In this document: positions 2,187 to 11,499 of the stretch, piece after piece
Layout: every line of letters begins with the position of its first letter
How positions within the stretch are numbered: the first letter of the stretch is position 1
Origin: Bdellovibrionales bacterium
GTDB lineage: Bacteria; Myxococcota; XYA12-FULL-58-9; SYDY01
Reading direction: 5' to 3'
DNA: 15,467 nucleotides
NCBI GenBank assembly: GCA_005801425.1
Contig: SYDY01000082.1
Location: forward strand, 1-15,467
Notes under the pieces: model-generated
The model's input: only the letters and a program-made list of their open reading frames with translations
Database searches by the model: none
What the model was told of the DNA's origin: nothing
Position numbers and translations under genes: made by a program

Positions 2187-3980
2187 GTGAGGGGCCCCCA
2201 ACAAAGCATATTCATCCTTTTATGGATGTACCTCTGTCTCGCCGTCACCATCAGCGGCTGCGAGTACAATCCTTTGGGCCCAGCATTTCAAGGGGCCAAA
2301 ATGGAAGGTGATCTCGCAGAAATCAAAAAGCGGGGTGTTCTAAGAGTTTTGGTACAAGACAGCGACAGCGACCCCCTACCTATCCCGGGCGTTGTGGGTG
2401 AACAGGAACACGAACTGGTCAAAGACTTTTCCACCCACCTTGGGGTTGAAGCACAATTCGTATCACTTGCAGATGATAGAGAAATGTTAGCCACGCTCGC
2501 CAACCAAAGAGCCGATCTTATTGCCAGTCCCGTTCCCATCACCAAGGAGACTACACACAAAGGCATCGCCTACAGCCATCCCGTTGCCTCAAACCCACCA
2601 CTCGCTTGGGCTGTGCAAGCAAATGCCACCGAACTTCTACTTCGCGTTAATAATTTCCTGACGGAAAAGGCGCTCACACAACGCAATACATTGTATCCCC
2701 ACAAAGGCGATGTGGACGAGATCCGATCACGAGGGGTCTTGCGCGTACTCACACGTAACAGTGGCGTCTCTTATTTTCTCTACCGCGGCCAGCCCATGGG
2801 TTTTGATTATGATGTCGCAAAAATGCTCGCCAAAAAACTGGGTGTAGGCATCGAAATGGTGGTGGCACCCAGCAATGAAATGCTCATTCCATGGCTTCTT
2901 CAAGGTCGTGGCGATATCATCGCGGCATCCTTTGGCATCACGCCTGCACGTGCACGCCATGTGTTCTTCTCTAAGCCCTATTTAAACGCAAATCCTTATC
3001 TAGTTGCAGATGCCGATATTCAAAATACCCAAGGCTTGCCCAAACTCACCGATCAGACCATTCATGTTCCCATCGATTCGGTTTATTCGGGCTATATTGA
3101 ATCCAATCAGCATTCATACGGATGTTTTATCGAAAAAGTAGAACCACCTTCTGACACACAAGATCTTGTGCGCATGGTGGCCGAAAAAAAGATAAAATAC
3201 ACCGTCACCGATGAACACATCATCGAGATGTTCGATGATGCAAAAAATATAAGTATATTCAAAATGCCACCAGGAAAGTATGGTTCTATCCGCATCGCCT
3301 TTGCCATGCGACCCTCAAATCCCGAACTCCGCAACAGCGTGAATCATTTTGTGGACTCCATACAGAAAACTGCAGAGTTTAATATTCTCAGAACACGCTA
3401 TCAACGTAAAAATGGCCCTGAAAATACACAAAAAAATGGGCATACATATGTCGCAGGTCAAATTTCACCCTATGACAATATCATTAAGAAATATGCGCGT
3501 AAGTACAACATTGATTGGCGTTTGATGGCCGCCCAAGCCTTTCATGAAAGTAAATTTCGCCCACGTGCTGTGAGTTGGGCCGGAGCGCTCGGATTATTTC
3601 AAGTGCTCCCTAAAACCGGTGCCGAATTGGGATTTCACAATCTTACTGATCCGGAAATTGGTGTTCACGCAGGGATCCAATACATGACAAATTTAATGAA
3701 TCGCTTACCCCATCGGATCGAATTTCCAAGCCGTGTTCGCATGGCCCTGGCGGCTTTCAATGCAGGTATGGGCCATCTTGAGGATGCCCGACGCCTCGCA
3801 CAGCAAAAAGGTCTTGATCCCGATATTTGGTTCGGAAACGTAGAAAAAGTCATGCCACTTCTCGCAGATCCTGTTCACTACATGCGATCACGCTACGGAT
3901 ACTGCCGTGGTACAGAACCCGTGCAATACGTTTCTCGCATCCAAACGACCTATGAACAGTATGTGCAGGTATTCAAATAA
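2187..3980 (+). CDS. MltF-like membrane-bound lytic transglycosylase lipoprotein with a duplicated solute-binding module
   Basis: Probably cleaves the MurNAc-GlcNAc bond of peptidoglycan non-hydrolytically (1,6-anhydroMurNAc product) at the periplasmic face of the outer membrane. It starts with GTG. The signal peptide has a hydrophobic core (FILLWMYLCLAVTI) and a lipobox ISGC with the lipidated Cys at residue 25. Next come two SBP_bac_3-like modules: residues ~41-165, opening GDLAEIKKRGVLRVL, and ~174-405, opening GDVDEIRSRGVLRVL. The C-terminus (~428-590) is an SLT domain with AAQAFHESKF (catalytic Glu454), GALGLFQVLPKTGAELG and LAAFNAGMGH. At 597 residues it is longer than E. coli MltF (~518) because of the extra module. 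The first module goes from the RADLIASPVPITKE element to a domain-closing segment, so it seems to lack one lobe. The start has no clear Shine-Dalgarno. A later ATG (codon 14) would destroy the signal peptide. The gene ends 3 bp from the stop of the convergent icmF. Confidence 0.9.
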   Translation: MRGPQQSIFILLWMYLCLAVTISGCEYNPLGPAFQGAKMEGDLAEIKKRGVLRVLVQDSDSDPLPIPGVVGEQEHELVKDFSTHLGVEAQFVSLADDREMLATLANQRADLIASPVPITKETTHKGIAYSHPVASNPPLAWAVQANATELLLRVNNFLTEKALTQRNTLYPHKGDVDEIRSRGVLRVLTRNSGVSYFLYRGQPMGFDYDVAKMLAKKLGVGIEMVVAPSNEMLIPWLLQGRGDIIAASFGITPARARHVFFSKPYLNANPYLVADADIQNTQGLPKLTDQTIHVPIDSVYSGYIESNQHSYGCFIEKVEPPSDTQDLVRMVAEKKIKYTVTDEHIIEMFDDAKNISIFKMPPGKYGSIRIAFAMRPSNPELRNSVNHFVDSIQKTAEFNILRTRYQRKNGPENTQKNGHTYVAGQISPYDNIIKKYARKYNIDWRLMAAQAFHESKFRPRAVSWAGALGLFQVLPKTGAELGFHNLTDPEIGVHAGIQYMTNLMNRLPHRIEFPSRVRMALAAFNAGMGHLEDARRLAQQKGLDPDIWFGNVEKVMPLLADPVHYMRSRYGYCRGTEPVQYVSRIQTTYEQYVQVFK

Positions 3981-3983
3981 AAA

Positions 3984-6900
3984 TTACATATTCCTCCGAT
4001 ACTGCCCCCCCACTGCAAACAGCGCCTGCGTGATCTGACCAAGCGTACAAAACTTGCTCGTATGCAACAATTCATCAAACACATTGCCGCCGCTTGATGC
4101 CACCCGTTGCAAGTTTTTCAACGTCTCATCCGCATAAGAAGAATGCGTATATTGTACCCATTCTTTGGTTTCAATCTGCTGCTCTTTTTCTTCTGTGCTT
4201 GAACGCATCACAGCCGCAGGGATCATGGTCGGAGAACCATCGGTTCCCAAAAACATATTCACACCCACAAGTGGCAATGCACCCGAATGCTTCATGTGCT
4301 CATAATGAAGTGATTCTTCTTGTATTTTCCCACGTTGATACATGGTTTCCATGGCACCCAAAACACCACCGCGTTCACTGATTCGCGCAAATTCGACAAG
4401 AACTGCTTCTTCAACAACGTTGGTAAGTTCTTCAACCCAAAACGAGCCTTGCAAAATATTCTGCCCTTGGGTTGCTCCAAACTCGCGATTAATCACCAGC
4501 TGAATAGCCATGGCACGACGCACCGATTCTTCCGTCGGTGTTGTCACGGCTTCATCGTAGGCATTGGTGTGGAGTGAATTGCAATTATCGAAAATAGCTA
4601 AAACCGCTTGAAGCGTCGTCCGAATATCATTAAACGCCACTTCCTGGGCATGAAGCGATCGACCCGATGTTTGCACGTGATATTTGAGCATCTGTGATCT
4701 GTCTGATGCCCCATAACGTTCACGCATGGCCTTGGCCCAAATGCGACGAGCTACTCGCCCAAGAACCACATATTCGGGATCCAAACCATTGGAGAAAAAG
4801 AACGATAAATTCGGTGCAAACGAATCGATCGAAAGCCCACGCGACAAATAATATTCAACGTACGTAAATCCGTTGGCAAGCGTAAAAGCAAGCTGCGTAA
4901 TAGGGTTGGCCCCTGCTTCCGCAATATGGTAGCCCGAAATGGATACACTATAAAAATTACGAATATTGCGCGCGGTAAAGCTTGCCTGAACATCCCCCAT
5001 CACTTTCAGAGAAAATTCTGTAGAAAAAATGCACGTGTTTTGCGCTTGATCTTCTTTAAGAATATCCGCCTGAACTGTACCGCGCACATTGCTCAATGTG
5101 TGGGCCTGAATACGGTCATAGACTTCACGGTCCAACACCTGGTCACCCGTAACGCCCAAAAGCATCAATCCTAAGCCATTGTGAGAACGAGGAAGCTCGC
5201 CGTGATAGACAGGTGCTTTTCCAATCAATTCTTTAATCTTTTGATAAATTTGTTTTTCAAGACCTTCGCGCTGAATATGCAACTCACACTGCTGATCCAC
5301 TGCAGCATTCATAAAAAATGCGACCAAGGTCGGGGCCGGTCCATTAATAGTCATCGACACCGAGGTATTGGGATCCAAAAGATTAAACCCCGAATACAAT
5401 TTTTTCGCATCATCGAGACAACACACCGAAACACCCGCATTACCCACTTTGCCGTAAATATCGGGACGACGATCTGGATCCGCACCGTACAATGTCGCCG
5501 AATCAAACGCAGTCGATAAACGGGACGCAGGTTGATCGCTTGCTAAATAATGAAATCGCCGATTGGTACGCTCAGGCCCCCCTTCACCTGCAAACATACG
5601 AATAGGATCTTCATTTTCTCGTTTAAATGGAAACACACCTGCCGTGTATGGGAAAAAACCGGGTAAATTTTCCTGCATCAACCAACGTAAAAGTGCACCA
5701 CCCTCATGACGCGGCAATGCCACTTTATGGATCTTGGTTCCTGCAAGACTTGTCCCATAGGCATCGATAGAGACTTCTTTTCCTCGAACACTGTAACGAA
5801 CAACACTTTCATTGTACCGATGACGAATATCCGGCCACGATGCCAAAGCTTCACGCGATGATGCGTTAAGTGTGCCCTCTAGAGCTGCCGAGCGATCTCC
5901 CACCGAAGCACCATCCGACGCGCACATTTCATAGGCGCGTATCAAATCCACTTTTTTTGCATCGTCTTCAATGCGTGTGTTGTACGCATGGATACAATCG
6001 GCAATGTCGGCCAAATATCGAACACGCTTGGGTGGGATCACATAGATTTTTTCTGATTCTGCATGAAGTTTGGATGGCTCTGTTCTACTTAAATCCTTCA
6101 CACCTAACGCCCGCAAGCGTTCTTTAATTTCCCAGTACAAGCGATCGGTGCCAGGATCGCCAAATTGCGATGCGATGGTACCAAAAACGGGCATATTTTC
6201 AGGTGAAACATCGAATGCTTGGCGACCCCGTTGCACTTGTTTGCGAACATCGCGCAAAGCATCGGCCGATCCATTTTTGTCGCATTTATTCAGGGCCACC
6301 ACATCGGCAAAGTCGAGCATATCAATTTTTTCAAGTTGTGTCGCAGCGCCGTATTCAGGTGTCATCACATACAAAGACAGATCGCATTGATCGACAATTT
6401 CGGTATCCGATTGCCCAATGCCCGATGTTTCCAAAATCACAAACGAAAATCCGGCCTGTTTCAAAACACACAGTGCACCTGGAACATGGGCAGAAAGCGC
6501 TAAATTGGCCTGCCTTGTCGCAAGAGAACGCATGTAGATCCGTGGCGACGACAAACTATTCATGCGAATACGATCACCAAGCAATGCACCACCGGTCTTG
6601 CGCTTGGATGGATCCACCGAAATCACGCCAATGCGCATGGTCTCGTTGTCATGAAGAAAACGACGAAGCAACTCATCCACAAGTGATGATTTCCCCGATC
6701 CTCCCGTCCCCGTGATCCCAAGTACCGGAACACCCGTCACATCGTTTCGAAGCCATGCATGTTGTACATCGGGATGATTTTCAATCACCGAAATTGCGCG
6801 GCCCAAGCTGCTTGCATCCCCCTTGGCAATCCCTTCGATCTCATGGGGTTTTAATGGCTCACCAAGTGGTCGGTCACAACGTTGCAGTAAATCATCGATC

Positions 6901-7313
6901 ATCCCCTGCAAACCAAGGGCACGACCATCATCCGGCGAGTAAATCCGTTCAACACCATAAGCCTGCAATTCCAAGATCTCCGAAGGCAAGATCACACCGC
7001 CCCCACCCCCAAAAATGCGAATATCGTCCCGCCCTGCGTCATGCAGCATATCAACCATATAACGAAAATATTCATTATGTCCTCCCTGATAGGAGGTCAT
7101 GGCGATGGCGCTGGCGTCTTCTTGGATCGCGCATTGCACCACATCGTAAGCCGATCGGTCATGCCCTAAATGAATGACCTCCGCACCTGATGCCTGTAAA
7201 ATTCTGCGCATGATATTGATCGCAGCATCGTGCCCATCAAAAAGTGACGCTGCGGTAACAATTCGGATTCGATTTTTAGCTTTGAAGGGCTGTGGATTCA
7301 CATCGATCTCCAT
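3984..7313 (-). CDS. icmF: Fused isobutyryl-CoA mutase IcmF (B12 domain + MeaI GTPase + mutase barrel)
   Basis: Adenosylcobalamin-dependent carbon-skeleton mutase interconverting isobutyryl-CoA and n-butyryl-CoA; family members also act on isovaleryl/pivalyl-CoA. The chaperone GTPase is built into the chain. Domain order: B12-binding Rossmann at residues ~18-150 with [10 protein letters not shown] (base-off ligand His28); G-protein domain ~190-400 with P-loop GTGGSGKSS near residue 201 and NKCD; linker; mutase TIM barrel from ~550 with RMFAGEGG (Phe574), QAQNTCIF (Gln758) and [11 protein letters not shown]; end [13 protein letters not shown]. Phe574 and Gln758 sit where methylmalonyl-CoA mutase has Tyr and Arg, which supports a non-carboxylated substrate. 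The 1109-residue length fits the family (~1,090). I chose ATG at 7313 because it gives the usual N-terminal length. The frame is open to TTG 7388, which would overlap meaB by 20 bp and translate across a hairpin. Last gene of a six-gene leftward operon; its stop is 3 bp from the convergent MltF-like gene. Confidence 0.94.
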
Positions 7314-7330
7314 ATTTTTGTCGCTTGGTG

Positions 7331-7349
7331 GGGCGGCTCGCAACCGCCC
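7331..7349 (-). other. Hairpin in the meaB-icmF intercistronic gap
   Basis: A perfect 6-bp GC-only inverted repeat (gggcgg / ccgccc, 7-nt loop) lies in the 55-bp gap between the meaB stop (7369) and the preferred icmF ATG (7313). There is no T-run after it, so it does not look like an intrinsic terminator. It could modulate icmF translation or mRNA processing. On the leftward strand a GGAGGG forms part of the left arm and is followed by an in-frame TTG in the loop, a less likely alternative start for icmF. Confidence 0.4.
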
Positions 7350-7368
7350 TCCATCAAGATGAAATATC

Positions 7369-8355
7369 TCAAGGCGATTCGTGAACAACCCCTAGATAAT
7401 CAAGAAATGATTCTTTAAGTACCATCGCTGCGCGTTCAGGCAGCATTGTTCCTTGTCGGACGGCATCAAACGTCATTGCATTATTTTTTTTAAAATCCTG
7501 CAAAGCCGCCCATAAACGACTCTCAAGCGAGATCCACATCCACGCTTCATGCTGCATGCTTCTCCTGGCTTCAAAATCACCGCTATTCACTCTTTTTTCT
7601 TTCCAACCCGCCAAATGCATCCACAATGCTTCAACACGCAGGGCTTCCAACCCACTCAGAAGCAACAGATCATCTGCCGAAAGATCGGGCCGAACCATCC
7701 GAAGTGCCGATTGCAATTCACCCCGCGCCATACGGGCCACTTGAAGACCTTCACCATCCGCTTTATTGATGCCAATGAGATCTGCACTCTCCAAAATTCC
7801 CTTTTTAAGCCCCTGCAACGCGTCCCCTGCCCCAGAAAGACAGAGCAGCAAACAACAGTCCACCAGATCCTTAACCCGTGTCTCACCCTGCCCAACACCC
7901 AATGTTTCAATGAAAATAACATCAAAGCCCGCTGCCTCGCACAACAACATCGCTTCATGGGTCCACGTAGAAACACCACCGTGCGCAAGTCTGCTTGGAC
8001 TCGGGCGAACAAATGCGCCATCAAGCAAACTCAGATCACGCATCCTTGTTTTATCACCAAGAATACTTCCGCCCGTCACCTCGCTTGTGGGATCAATGGC
8101 CAAAACCGCCACACGAAATCCTTCTTTCACAAGCAAACAACCCAGCGCATTAAGCAATGTACTTTTTCCTGCGCCAGGCGGTCCCGTCACCGCAATACGA
8201 TATGCACCACCGGTATGAGGCAAAAGCGCTTCTAAAAGGGCAACAGCACGCAAACGATCATCGCTGCGTGTACTTTCCACAAGCGTAATCGCCTGTGCCA
8301 ATGCAGCCCGATCTCCACGCTGTATGGATGCGGCAAAAGCATGAATATCATCCAT
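7369..8355 (-). CDS. meaB: MeaB/ArgK-type P-loop GTPase, methylmalonyl-CoA mutase chaperone
   Basis: G3E-family GTPase that gates delivery of adenosylcobalamin to methylmalonyl-CoA mutase and release of inactivated cofactor; the human counterpart is MMAA. Visible motifs: P-loop GPPGAGKS (residues 58-65, Lys64), [18 protein letters not shown], switch region [11 protein letters not shown], then [16 protein letters not shown] and the base-specificity motif NKAD. The C-terminus (~265-328) is the helical dimerisation arm. Length 328, normal for the family. I start it at ATG 8355, which overlaps the mutB stop in ATGGATGA and so suggests translational coupling. A GTG at 8379 would add eight residues (VFWISGWV) with no clear benefit. 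Small departures from the commonest family pattern (TLGVGQG rather than TVGVGQS) leave the nucleotide-binding residues intact. It lies directly after its presumed partner mutB. Confidence 0.95.
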
Positions 8356-10351
8356 GACCCAACCGCTTATCCAAAACACGAATTAAATCTTGCGCTGCCA
8401 CTGTAAGCACTGTTCCTGGGCCATACACCGCCAGAACACCTTGTTTAAGCAATTCTTCTGCATCGAGATCTGGCACAACCCCCCCGACCACCACCCCAAT
8501 ATCACCGCGTCCCAATGCATGCAGCGAAGCGATGAGCTCTGGCACAAGCATCATGTGCCCTGCCGCCAACGAGCTCACGCCGACCACATGCACATCGTTA
8601 TCAACCGCATCGCGCGCAGCTTCTTCGGGGGTCTGAAACAAGGGCCCAACATCCACATCAAAACCAATATCCGCAAACGATGACGCAACGACTTTCTGCC
8701 CGCGATCGTGTCCATCCTGACCCAATTTGACAACCAGTATGCGTGGAGGACGTCCATGGTTCTCAGCAAATGAACGCACCAACGTACGACACACTTTCAA
8801 CGAACTATCATCTTCACCCAGGTGATTTGCATAGATCCCCGTCACCACATAGCCCTCCACACGATAACGTCCAAACACCCGCTCTAAGCTTTCCGATATT
8901 TCGCCAACAGTTGCACCCAAGCGTGCTGCTTCAATCGATACTGCCAATAAATTTCCCGATGACGATTCTGCTACATGGGTAAGATGTGCAAGCGCAGTCT
9001 GGACTTTATCATGATCGCGTCGTGCACGCAGTTCACGAAGACGTTCACATTGTTTGTTGCGTACTGCATCCACATCGACGCGATGCAATTCGGGTGCATG
9101 CGAGGGCCCACCTGCAAACATATTAACGCCCACAAGTGCACGATCACCGCGCTCAATGGCCGCTTGCGTCGCCGCTGCATCCGCCTCAATACGCCGCTTG
9201 GGTAAACCGCTTTCAATTGCCTTAAGCATGCCGCCCAGTGATTCTATTTCATCCATTTCACGCTGCGCATTTTCGAGCATACTCGCAACGCGGGCCTCCA
9301 TCACATGAGAACCACCCCATGGGTCGATCGACTCCGTAAGGCCTGCTTCTCGCTGCAAAAATAATTGAGTATTGCGTGCGATCCGCGCGCTGAATGGTGT
9401 TGGAAGTGCCAATGCTTCATCGAATGCGTTGGTATGCAACGACTGCGTACCACCCCATGTTGCAGCAAACGCTTCGATGCATGTTCGCGCAATGTTGTTG
9501 TACGGCAATTGTGCGGTAAGCGACCATCCTGACGTCTGACAATGGGCACGCAAACACGATGATTTTGGATCTTTCGGTTCAAACGGCAACATCAACCGTG
9601 CCCACAACAACCGCGCAGCACGCAGTTTTGCAATTTCGCTGATGAGATCCATCCCAATACCCCAAAAAAACGATAGCCTTGGCGCAAAGTCATCCACCGC
9701 AAGACCCGCATTCAATCCAACACGCACGTATTCAATTCCGTTAGCCAACGTATAGGCCAATTCAAGATCAGGCGAAGCACCTGCTTCCTGCATGTGATAT
9801 CCAGAAATACTGATGCTATTAAATTTAGGCATCTCTTTCGCCGTGTAACGGAAAATATCACCGACAATGCGTAAACTTGGCGCAGGTGGGTAAATATAGG
9901 TATTGCGCACCATGAATTCTTTTAAAATATCATTCTGAATGGTTCCGGAAAGATCCTTCGCCGCAACACCTTGTCTTTCGGCCGCCACCACAAACATCGC
10001 AAGTACCGGAAGCACTGCACCGTTCATGGTCATGGACACACTGATCTTGTCCAATGGGATCCCATCAAACAAGATCATCATGTCTTCGACACTGTCTACA
10101 GCAACTCCCGCCATACCCACGTCGCCACTGACCCGTGGATGATCCGAATCGTAACCACGATGGGTCGCCAAATCGAACGCTACCGATAAACCTTTTTGTC
10201 CTTCGGCAAGTGCGCGTTTATAAAATGCATTGCTTTCTTCGGCTGTCGAAAATCCTGCATATTGCCTGATGGTCCACGGCTGCGTCGTGTACATGGTTGA
10301 ATAAGGACCACGCAAAAACGGCCATACACCGGGCTTATCGTTTTCATTCAC
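8348..10351 (-). CDS. mutB: Methylmalonyl-CoA mutase, catalytic (large) subunit
   Basis: Adenosylcobalamin-dependent rearrangement of (R)-methylmalonyl-CoA to succinyl-CoA, the last step of propionyl-CoA entry into the TCA cycle. The substrate barrel covers residues ~10-380: [25 protein letters not shown] (Tyr31), [11 protein letters not shown] (Arg149, which pairs with the substrate carboxylate), [11 protein letters not shown] (catalytic His186) and [10 protein letters not shown]. The C-terminal B12 domain (~530-667) has [10 protein letters not shown] with the axial ligand His548. All key catalytic residues are present, so it should be active. Numbering is from GTG 10351, which overlaps the upstream stop as GTGA and has AAGGGA nine bases upstream. 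ATG 10381 is in frame, adds ten residues and has a weaker RBS. Either way (667 or 677 residues) it is shorter than typical MutB (~715-730) because the N-terminal arm before PFLRGPY is largely missing. Overlaps meaB by 8 bp. Confidence 0.95.
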
Positions 10352-10956
10352 AATCGTATTTCCCTTTGCACTTCGTTCCATGCTGCTTTACATAAATCAT
10401 CAACCCATTGTTCATACACCCAGCTGCCAGCGAGTACATCGTCAGTGTACTGTCCTAAACCCGTTTCAAGCGCAACCACATGTTCAATGTGCTGCAACAT
10501 CGTTTCTGCATATTCTTGCGTTGTTGGAATATATTTTGCGATCCGCGATGTATCGATGGGGGTCACGCCACCCAAGTGACTCGCCAAGACAGCCGCTGTC
10601 ACGCGTAAAACATTATCCCATGGTTCCTGCACAGTCATCATACGTTCCGAACATTGTGCATGAATGATCACCGGCGCATCGCCAGCACCAAGCATACGCA
10701 TCATTCTCGCCCACAGAACACGTAACGCCTTAATTTTTGCAGCTTGCATTAATGGATCTTGTGCAAGCGACATGCGCACCGTCATGCGTTGCATGACATC
10801 ATGCGCAGACATGCCATGCTTTTTCATTTCATCACACAAAGCAAAAGCATGATTGATAGACCAAGCAATTTCCTGCGCAATCGTTGCGCCTTCTTCATGC
10901 CACGCCGTTGCATCAATCGTAAAACTGGGCGGCCCAACAATAGCTTGTTGCTTCAT
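10348..10956 (-). CDS. Methylmalonyl-CoA mutase-like half-barrel protein, shortened MutA (non-catalytic) subunit candidate
   Basis: 202 residues that align by eye, almost end to end, with MutB residues ~180-390, the C-terminal half of the substrate TIM barrel. For example [15 protein letters not shown] matches Mut[16 protein letters not shown], and [20 protein letters not shown] matches the [12 protein letters not shown]...YNN stretch. The catalytic His of GYHMQEAG falls on Ala (region [10 protein letters not shown]), and there is no B12 domain, so it cannot be a mutase alone. Its position just before mutB, with a 4-bp GTGA overlap, is that of mutA, which encodes the non-catalytic subunit of heterodimeric mutases; that subunit normally has ~600 residues. 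I see no leftover coding sequence upstream: the previous gene ends 18 bp away with its own complete reading frame. The ATG has AAGG about eight bases upstream. The half-barrel homology is clear. The role as a scaffold or partner of MutB is inferred. Confidence 0.85.
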
Positions 10957-10974
10957 CGCGCGACCTTACCATGG

Positions 10975-11499
10975 TCACAATCCCATTTCATCAAGTCGAC
11001 GTTGCAATATTGCACGATTAACAACATCTTTTTCCGTCGCCAAATGGACTTTGGCCATAGATTTAGCCTCTGGGATCCGCATCGCAAAGATGCATTGGAT
11101 CCCCACTTCTCTGATCCGTGGTTCTGCATCGGCCATCAGTGTTAACAGAAAGGCCTTCAACCGCTCAAGATCACGACTCCGTGCCATGGCTTGGGCATAA
11201 GCCGCTTGGATTTGAAGATCCAGCTCAGGCCAAACACGGGCTTCACGCCAAAGCGCTTCTGTGGTTGCATCGGGACGTACCCCCAGCAATGCAATCGCAC
11301 GCCCACGTGTAAAAACACGCACCGATGTATCCCGAGCCACATCACGCAATGCTTTCAGTTGTTCATCATCCAAGGATTTTAGCACCGCTGGCGCAACGGG
11401 ATGATGTCCAGCAATCAATGCCATCACATCATCACGTGCAGAAGCCTGAGCAACCATCGCAGGAAACACGCCCAAACAGATCATTATCAATAAACGCAT
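10975..11499 (-). CDS. Small secreted HEAT-repeat-like protein of unknown function
   Basis: 174 residues. A Sec signal peptide (hydrophobic residues 3-17, cleavage probably after ASA at 19-21) predicts export to the periplasm. The mature part is all-helical in character, with repeating Leu/Ala-rich amphipathic segments such as LKALRDVARDTSVRVFTRGR and LLTLMADAEPRIREVGIQCI. This resembles two to four degenerate HEAT repeats, a protein-binding fold. No catalytic motif is visible. The ATG follows a good RBS (GGGAG, six-base spacer). The gene starts only 11 bp after the metzincin lipoprotein and ends 18 bp before the mutase half-barrel gene, so it is almost certainly cotranscribed with both. A partnership with the adjacent exported protease is a guess from position. 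Confidence 0.8.
   Translation of the reverse strand: MRLLIMICLGVFPAMVAQASARDDVMALIAGHHPVAPAVLKSLDDEQLKALRDVARDTSVRVFTRGRAIALLGVRPDATTEALWREARVWPELDLQIQAAYAQAMARSRDLERLKAFLLTLMADAEPRIREVGIQCIFAMRIPEAKSMAKVHLATEKDVVNRAILQRRLDEMGL

What the first reader, a model, noticed from the sequence alone, without database searches (positions are those of the whole stretch)
10348..10956. A half-barrel 'mini-MutA' coupled to catalytic methylmalonyl-CoA mutase
The protein aligns only with the C-terminal half of the mutase TIM barrel. It lacks the N-terminal half, the catalytic His and the whole B12 domain, yet it is intact, has its own start and RBS, and shares a 4-bp GTGA overlap with mutB exactly where a full-length mutA normally sits. 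Heterodimeric mutases are established (MutA ~600 residues, non-catalytic). A ~200-residue version is not one I know. It may be a reduced partner that caps the MutB dimer interface, completes or stabilises its barrel, or docks MeaB.
Basis: partly seen in the sequence, partly recalled or inferred. Interest (0 to 1): 0.75.

Follow-up and report, generated by a model that had tools for sequence, protein, structure and literature searches.

The report
Shrunken half-barrel partner of methylmalonyl-CoA mutase
[quoted passage not shown] the remaining half-barrel protein still looks maintained by selection, so it may be the smallest helper subunit of this enzyme family.

Summary
ORF 10348-10956 (-) encodes an intact 202-residue protein matching only the C-terminal half of the mutase barrel. 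It sits at the mutA position, with its own RBS and a GTGA overlap with mutB; the genome has no other MutA. Its best matches are MutA subunits, and its AlphaFold model (pLDDT 91.5) is a (beta-alpha)4 half-barrel superposing on MutA.

It has diverged about 2 substitutions per site, ten times the MutA median, yet keeps frame, codon usage and fold profile better than 220 neutral simulations, so it is not an old pseudogene. The kept piece is the most conserved part of MutA.

New here: the adjacent MutB has lost its N-terminal arm and evolved fast, and reduced MutAs recur (a Myxococcota clade with compressed N-half, one member with none, one fused to MutB; Bacteroidota MutAs without B12-like domain). 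The 202-residue form was seen once among about 1,340 genomes, though four of five surveys used cut-offs that could miss one this divergent.

Best reading: a domain-atrophied MutA still paired with MutB. Pairing is inferred, not shown. A vestigial gene beside a homodimerising MutB is the main rival.

The parts
10348..10956 (-). mini-MutA, 202 aa: stand-alone (beta-alpha)5-8 half-barrel plus C-terminal helix, derived from the methylmalonyl-CoA mutase small subunit
10957..10974 (-). 18-bp gap to the upstream gene; holds the AAGG Shine-Dalgarno-like site (10964-10967) for mini-MutA
10348..10351 (-). GTGA overlap of the mini-MutA stop (TGA) and the mutB start (GTG); AGGG site for mutB at about 10362-10365 inside mini-MutA
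8348..10351 (-). MutB, catalytic subunit, 667 aa from GTG (ATG at 10381 possible); catalytic YH and DGHDRG motifs present; N-terminal arm missing; long branch
7369..8379 (-). MeaB G-protein chaperone
3984..7388 (-). IcmF, fused isobutyryl-CoA mutase/G-protein, same cluster
10975..11499 (-). upstream 174-aa protein, no Pfam match, possibly co-transcribed

Best explanation
Mini-MutA is a real, domain-atrophied MutA. SHOWN: it descends from MutA; it keeps only barrel strands 5-8 with their helices; its frame, codon usage and fold-compatible residues have been maintained by selection over most of a very long divergence; it is the genome's only MutA and overlaps mutB. INFERRED: it is expressed, still binds MutB and takes the place of full-length MutA in a slimmed mutase, with its exposed half-barrel core covered by MutB (or by a second copy). 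It would act as a structural, non-catalytic subunit that stabilises the catalytic barrel, while MutB keeps the active site and B12 domain and MeaB loads the cofactor onto MutB alone. The missing MutB arm and the fast evolution of MutB are read as the matching change on the other side of a remodelled interface.
For: Family and fold: pLDDT 91.5, pTM 0.87; Z about 20. Selection: 139.5 bits to a MutA-only profile against at most 124.7 in 220 neutral simulations, hydrophobicity correlation 0.66 against at most 0.63, median 6 nonsense hits expected; codon adaptation 0.748 equals the neighbours, random synonymous 0.591 +/- 0.024. Only MutA in a complete genome, epimerase present. The kept part is the most conserved of MutA: 0.616 pairwise identity against 0.434 for the N-half and 0.495 for the B12-like domain, whereas MutB shows 0.847 and 0.885 for C- and N-half. 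Parallel reductions before mutB: eight reduced MutAs in one clade (UFBoot 100), among them one without an N-half (L114) and one fused to MutB (L115). MutB comes from the MutA-partnered clade (UFBoot 98; the two homodimer-type placements tested are rejected). Precedent: atrophied barrels thought to be rescued by dimerisation (PMC4432964).
Against: No interaction was modelled or measured. Seen in one genome at contig level, with no sister species. Retention of MutA consensus residues falls off by conservation class roughly as unconstrained loss would predict. The conserved R-x-A-R-N-T helix motif is lost. MutB carries the homodimer-type residue at 8 of 24 sites that distinguish the two types, more than any MutA-partnered MutB checked, so it may manage without a partner. 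AlphaFold confidence rests on an alignment of full barrels and does not prove that the half is stable alone.
Confidence: 0.52

Rival explanations
1. Vestige: MutB has become able to homodimerise, MutA has become dispensable, and mini-MutA is the last piece of a gene that was trimmed at both ends fairly recently, after most of its divergence had built up in a longer functional protein. It is translated but does little.
For: Very long branch (2.07 against a median of 0.20); consensus retention pattern close to unconstrained loss; MutB partly homodimer-like (8 of 24 sites; region pattern like MutBs without MutA); MutB without adjacent MutA is common in the phylum.
Against: Intact frame and clean boundaries (own RBS, stop overlapping the mutB start); fold profile and codon usage better than neutral drift; MutB groups with the MutA-partnered clade.
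Confidence: 0.27
2. Self-assembled barrel: two half-barrels join into a (beta-alpha)8-like homodimer, as engineered HisF halves do, and this dimer is what meets MutB or acts alone.
For: The model is a clean (beta-alpha)4 unit; half-barrels from different sources can assemble (review PMC8250049).
Against: Not tested; no contact evidence; linkage to mutB suggests a MutB partner.
Confidence: 0.09
3. Chaperone role: it docks MeaB or IcmF rather than MutB.
For: It lies in one cluster with meaB and icmF.
Against: The inactive MCM subunit is not predicted to touch the G-protein (PMC9974510); MeaB acts on the B12 domain, which mini-MutA lacks.
Confidence: 0.04
4. Assembly artefact: a collapsed or chimeric contig removed parts of mutA and the start of mutB.
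For: Both mutA ends and the mutB start are missing, at two junctions in a contig-level assembly.
Against: Both junctions give clean stops, starts and RBS; the protein itself is highly divergent over its whole length, which an assembly error cannot produce.
Confidence: 0.05

Closest known systems
MutA, methylmalonyl-CoA mutase small (beta) subunit (TIGR00642; P. shermanii 1REQ chain B, M. tuberculosis 6OXC chain B)
   Same: Sequence family, MutA-type signatures (IHAxxS, PWxNxLR, AGS), no catalytic His, place before mutB-meaB
   Different: 202 instead of about 620 residues: no arm, no strands 1-4, no belt, no B12-like domain; 21-30% identity
Reduced MutAs of Myxococcota (this study: L074, L109-L114, fusion L115)
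   Same: Shortened or absent N-half before an intact mutB; L115 also lacks the B12-like domain
   Different: They keep the N-terminal arm and (except L115) the B12-like domain; mini-MutA is not inside their clade
MutAs without B12-like domain (about 460-480 aa) in Bacteroidota
   Same: Loss of the B12-like domain, gene before mutB
   Different: Whole barrel kept
Domain-atrophied TIM barrels such as LuxF (PMC4432964)
   Same: Loss of core barrel elements, proposed rescue by a protein interface
   Different: Other family; LuxF loses fewer elements and is a homodimer
HisF half-barrels (engineered)
   Same: (beta-alpha)4 unit of a (beta-alpha)8 barrel
   Different: Engineered by cutting an enzyme; here natural and reached by loss

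Membership tests
MutA small subunit (TIGR00642) | Closer to MutA than to MutB | tested here: met
   phmmer 92 and 62 bits to MutA chains, 47 or less to MutB; Foldseek ranks MutA chains first
MutA small subunit (TIGR00642) | Full-length model match over the curated cut-off (617 bits) | tested here: not met
   109 bits, positions 217-405 of 620; note that no Myxococcota MutA reaches the cut-off either
MutA small subunit (TIGR00642) | N-terminal arm, complete barrel, B12-like domain | tested here: not met
   absent from the ORF and its flanks
MutA small subunit (TIGR00642) | Gene directly before mutB, with meaB | tested here: met
   same order in relatives
MutA small subunit (TIGR00642) | Heterodimer with MutB | not testable with these tools
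   no complex modelling
Domain-atrophied functional partial domain | Loss of core fold elements, not an annotation or boundary error | tested here: met
   strands 1-4 missing; the ORF is bounded by a stop and by a neighbouring gene
Domain-atrophied functional partial domain | Under selection | tested here: met
   weakened
Domain-atrophied functional partial domain | Exposed core buried by an interface | not testable with these tools
   no complex modelling
Pseudogene | Stops, frameshifts or neutral drift | tested here: not met
   recent truncation is not excluded

The most novel reading that the evidence does not exclude
A natural stand-alone (beta-alpha)4 half-barrel, the end point of stepwise shrinkage of a pseudoenzyme subunit, is an obligate partner of an arm-less MutB, making a 'one and a half barrel' methylmalonyl-CoA mutase.
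Probability: 0.33. Interest if true: 0.75.

Novelty: new variant of a known kind. Interest (0 to 1): 0.52.

Why it matters
MutA has no active site, and what it is for is, to my knowledge, not settled. A lineage that kept only a third of it points to the part that matters, and lets that be tested with a 202-residue protein. It would also be a natural half-barrel, a unit long discussed in theories of TIM-barrel evolution but known mainly from engineering, here reached by loss rather than by ancestry. The Myxococcota series (full, compressed, half, fused) gives steps along that path.

Tried and rejected
Close relatives: a genome-contig scan with the protein found none; no other genome of the same family was returned. 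An alignment of mini-MutA with distant MutAs was too variable to scan with, so a MutA-only alignment was used. L215 looked like a second half-MutA but lies beside a run of N; L214, L220, L225 and L226 are cut by contig ends; G974 is a compact MutA of about 420 residues with a divergent N-half and no B12-like domain. Counting retained consensus residues did not separate selection from drift; a simulation at equal family identity did. Placing the window's MutB with homodimer-type MutBs was rejected for both placements tested (p-AU 0.022 and 0.0003), but placement with the same-order MutB was not (0.144). No PDB chain of half length appeared among the Foldseek matches shown. The surveys outside Myxococcota used cut-offs (1e-47, 1e-52) that a copy as divergent as this one could miss.

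Full report
OBSERVATION. The window is one whole contig (C74) of a 3.38-Mb genome (100% complete, 1.3% contamination) in a phylum whose named members reached here are Myxococcota. On the minus strand the cluster reads: a 174-aa protein without Pfam match - mini-MutA - mutB - meaB - icmF. Mini-MutA is 202 residues, ATG start with AAGG seven bases upstream, and its TGA overlaps the mutB GTG as GTGA. It matches PF01642 at 201-389 of 512 (129.8 bits) and nothing else. A whole-genome search finds no other MutA; the four PF01642 matches are mini-MutA, MutB and two parts of IcmF.

WHAT IT IS. By sequence it is MutA, not a piece of MutB: M. tuberculosis MutA 92 bits and P. shermanii MutA 62, the best MutB 47. 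It shows MutA-type motifs ([24 protein letters not shown]). The AlphaFold2 model built with 41 MutA relatives has mean pLDDT 91.5 and pTM 0.87: four strands (12-15, 58-64, 97-102, about 134-135) alternating with helices, then a long C-terminal helix, i.e. barrel units 5-8. Foldseek puts MutA chains first (E 5e-11, TM 0.84-0.88 over the query) and every strong match is a full-length mutase chain; VIA-align gives Z around 20 over 200 residues.

DECAY OR MAINTENANCE. In a tree of the region, mini-MutA has a terminal branch of 2.07 substitutions per site; the median for MutA is 0.20 and the next longest 1.02; its place within MutA is unresolved. Their scores against a MutA-only profile reached at most 124.7 bits (median 84.5), mini-MutA 139.5; their hydrophobicity correlation reached at most 0.63, mini-MutA 0.66. 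Codon adaptation is 0.748, like its neighbours, against 0.591 +/- 0.024 for random synonymous codons. So most of its divergence happened under selection for a folding protein. A simpler count of retained consensus residues by conservation class (54, 43, 18, 19%) looks close to unconstrained loss and tempers this. What cannot be told is whether truncation came before or after most of the divergence.

RELATIVES. Related genomes of the phylum carry mutA-mutB-meaB with a full-length MutA, often with icmF nearby; the same-order genome G001 has MutA of 644 and MutB of 749 residues. Within Myxococcota a monophyletic group of eight (UFBoot 100) has MutAs that match the family model only from about position 175-265. 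Their alignment shows the N-terminal arm kept and the N-half compressed to some 75-110 residues; in L114 (434 aa) almost nothing lies between arm and strand 5; in L115 the reduced MutA, without B12-like domain, is fused in frame to a full MutB (1112 aa). In Bacteroidota many MutAs of about 460-480 residues keep the barrel but lack the B12-like domain. Loss of the N-half and loss of the B12-like domain are thus separate, repeated events; mini-MutA shows both, and the loss of the arm. No second 202-residue form was found: Myxococcota 195 genomes, Acidobacteriota 287, Bacteroidota 287, Planctomycetota 284, Actinomycetota 286 (phylum names from the titles of the loci used as centres). The last four surveys used a strict cut-off that could miss a copy this divergent.

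THE PARTNER. MutB has its catalytic motifs (YH, DGHDRG) but at most 20 residues before the PFxRG motif, where 131 of 133 distinct MutB sequences have at least 55 open residues; the other exception (L071) has no MutA. MutB groups with MutA-partnered MutBs (98) on the longest branch of that tree (1.03); the two homodimer-type placements tested are rejected. Its C-half and belt have diverged more than its N-half, as in MutBs without MutA, and at 24 sites that separate the types it has 12 partnered, 8 homodimer and 4 other residues. This fits a remodelled interface, or a MutB moving towards homodimerisation; the data do not decide. ('Homodimer-type' here means only that no mutA was found beside that mutB.)

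HOW IT PROBABLY WORKS. In mutases the substrate barrels form the dimer interface (PMC10356863). Within MutA the C-half is far more conserved (0.616) than the N-half (0.434) or the B12-like domain (0.495), although MutA has no active site; in MutB the two halves are alike (0.847 and 0.885). I infer that the C-half carries what MutB needs from MutA, and that this lineage kept little more than that. The exposed core of a half-barrel needs cover, and MutB is the obvious candidate; atrophied barrels are proposed to be rescued in this way (PMC4432964). A MeaB-docking role is unlikely, as MeaB is not predicted to touch the inactive subunit (PMC9974510).

VERDICT. A real and uncommon feature, a new variant of a known kind, with selection supported and function inferred. 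It rests on a single genome without sister species, hence the moderate score.

Noticed in passing
L115:418-3756: In-frame fusion of a reduced MutA (arm + half-barrel, no B12-like domain) to a full MutB, 1112 aa, in a Myxococcota genome (G101).
   Followed up: partly
L114:3174-4478: MutA of 434 aa with almost nothing between the N-terminal arm and barrel strand 5; a SPLPRGEGQGEGE stretch lies at the deletion point. Similar SPTLSP-GERE stretches lie in the MutAs of L109 and L115, as if a short repeat element had been taken up into the genes.
   Followed up: no
window 8348-10381: MutB lacks the N-terminal arm that nearly all other MutBs have, and is on an unusually long branch.
   Followed up: yes
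L071:5397-7451: A MutB without N-terminal arm and without MutA in a 1.8-Mb genome (G035): independent loss of the arm.
   Followed up: no
L209-L213, L216-L218: Bacteroidota MutAs of about 460-480 aa that keep the barrel but lack the B12-like domain.
   Followed up: partly
window 10975-11499: 174-aa protein with a possible signal peptide and HEAT-like look, no Pfam match, 18 bp upstream of mini-MutA.
   Followed up: no
window 2187-3980: 597-aa protein that appears to carry solute-binding-type segments before a lytic transglycosylase-like end (read from sequence only, not searched).
   Followed up: no
L119: In G116, meaB is split over two frames and MutA is shortened, probably sequencing errors or recent damage in an otherwise normal cluster.
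   Followed up: no
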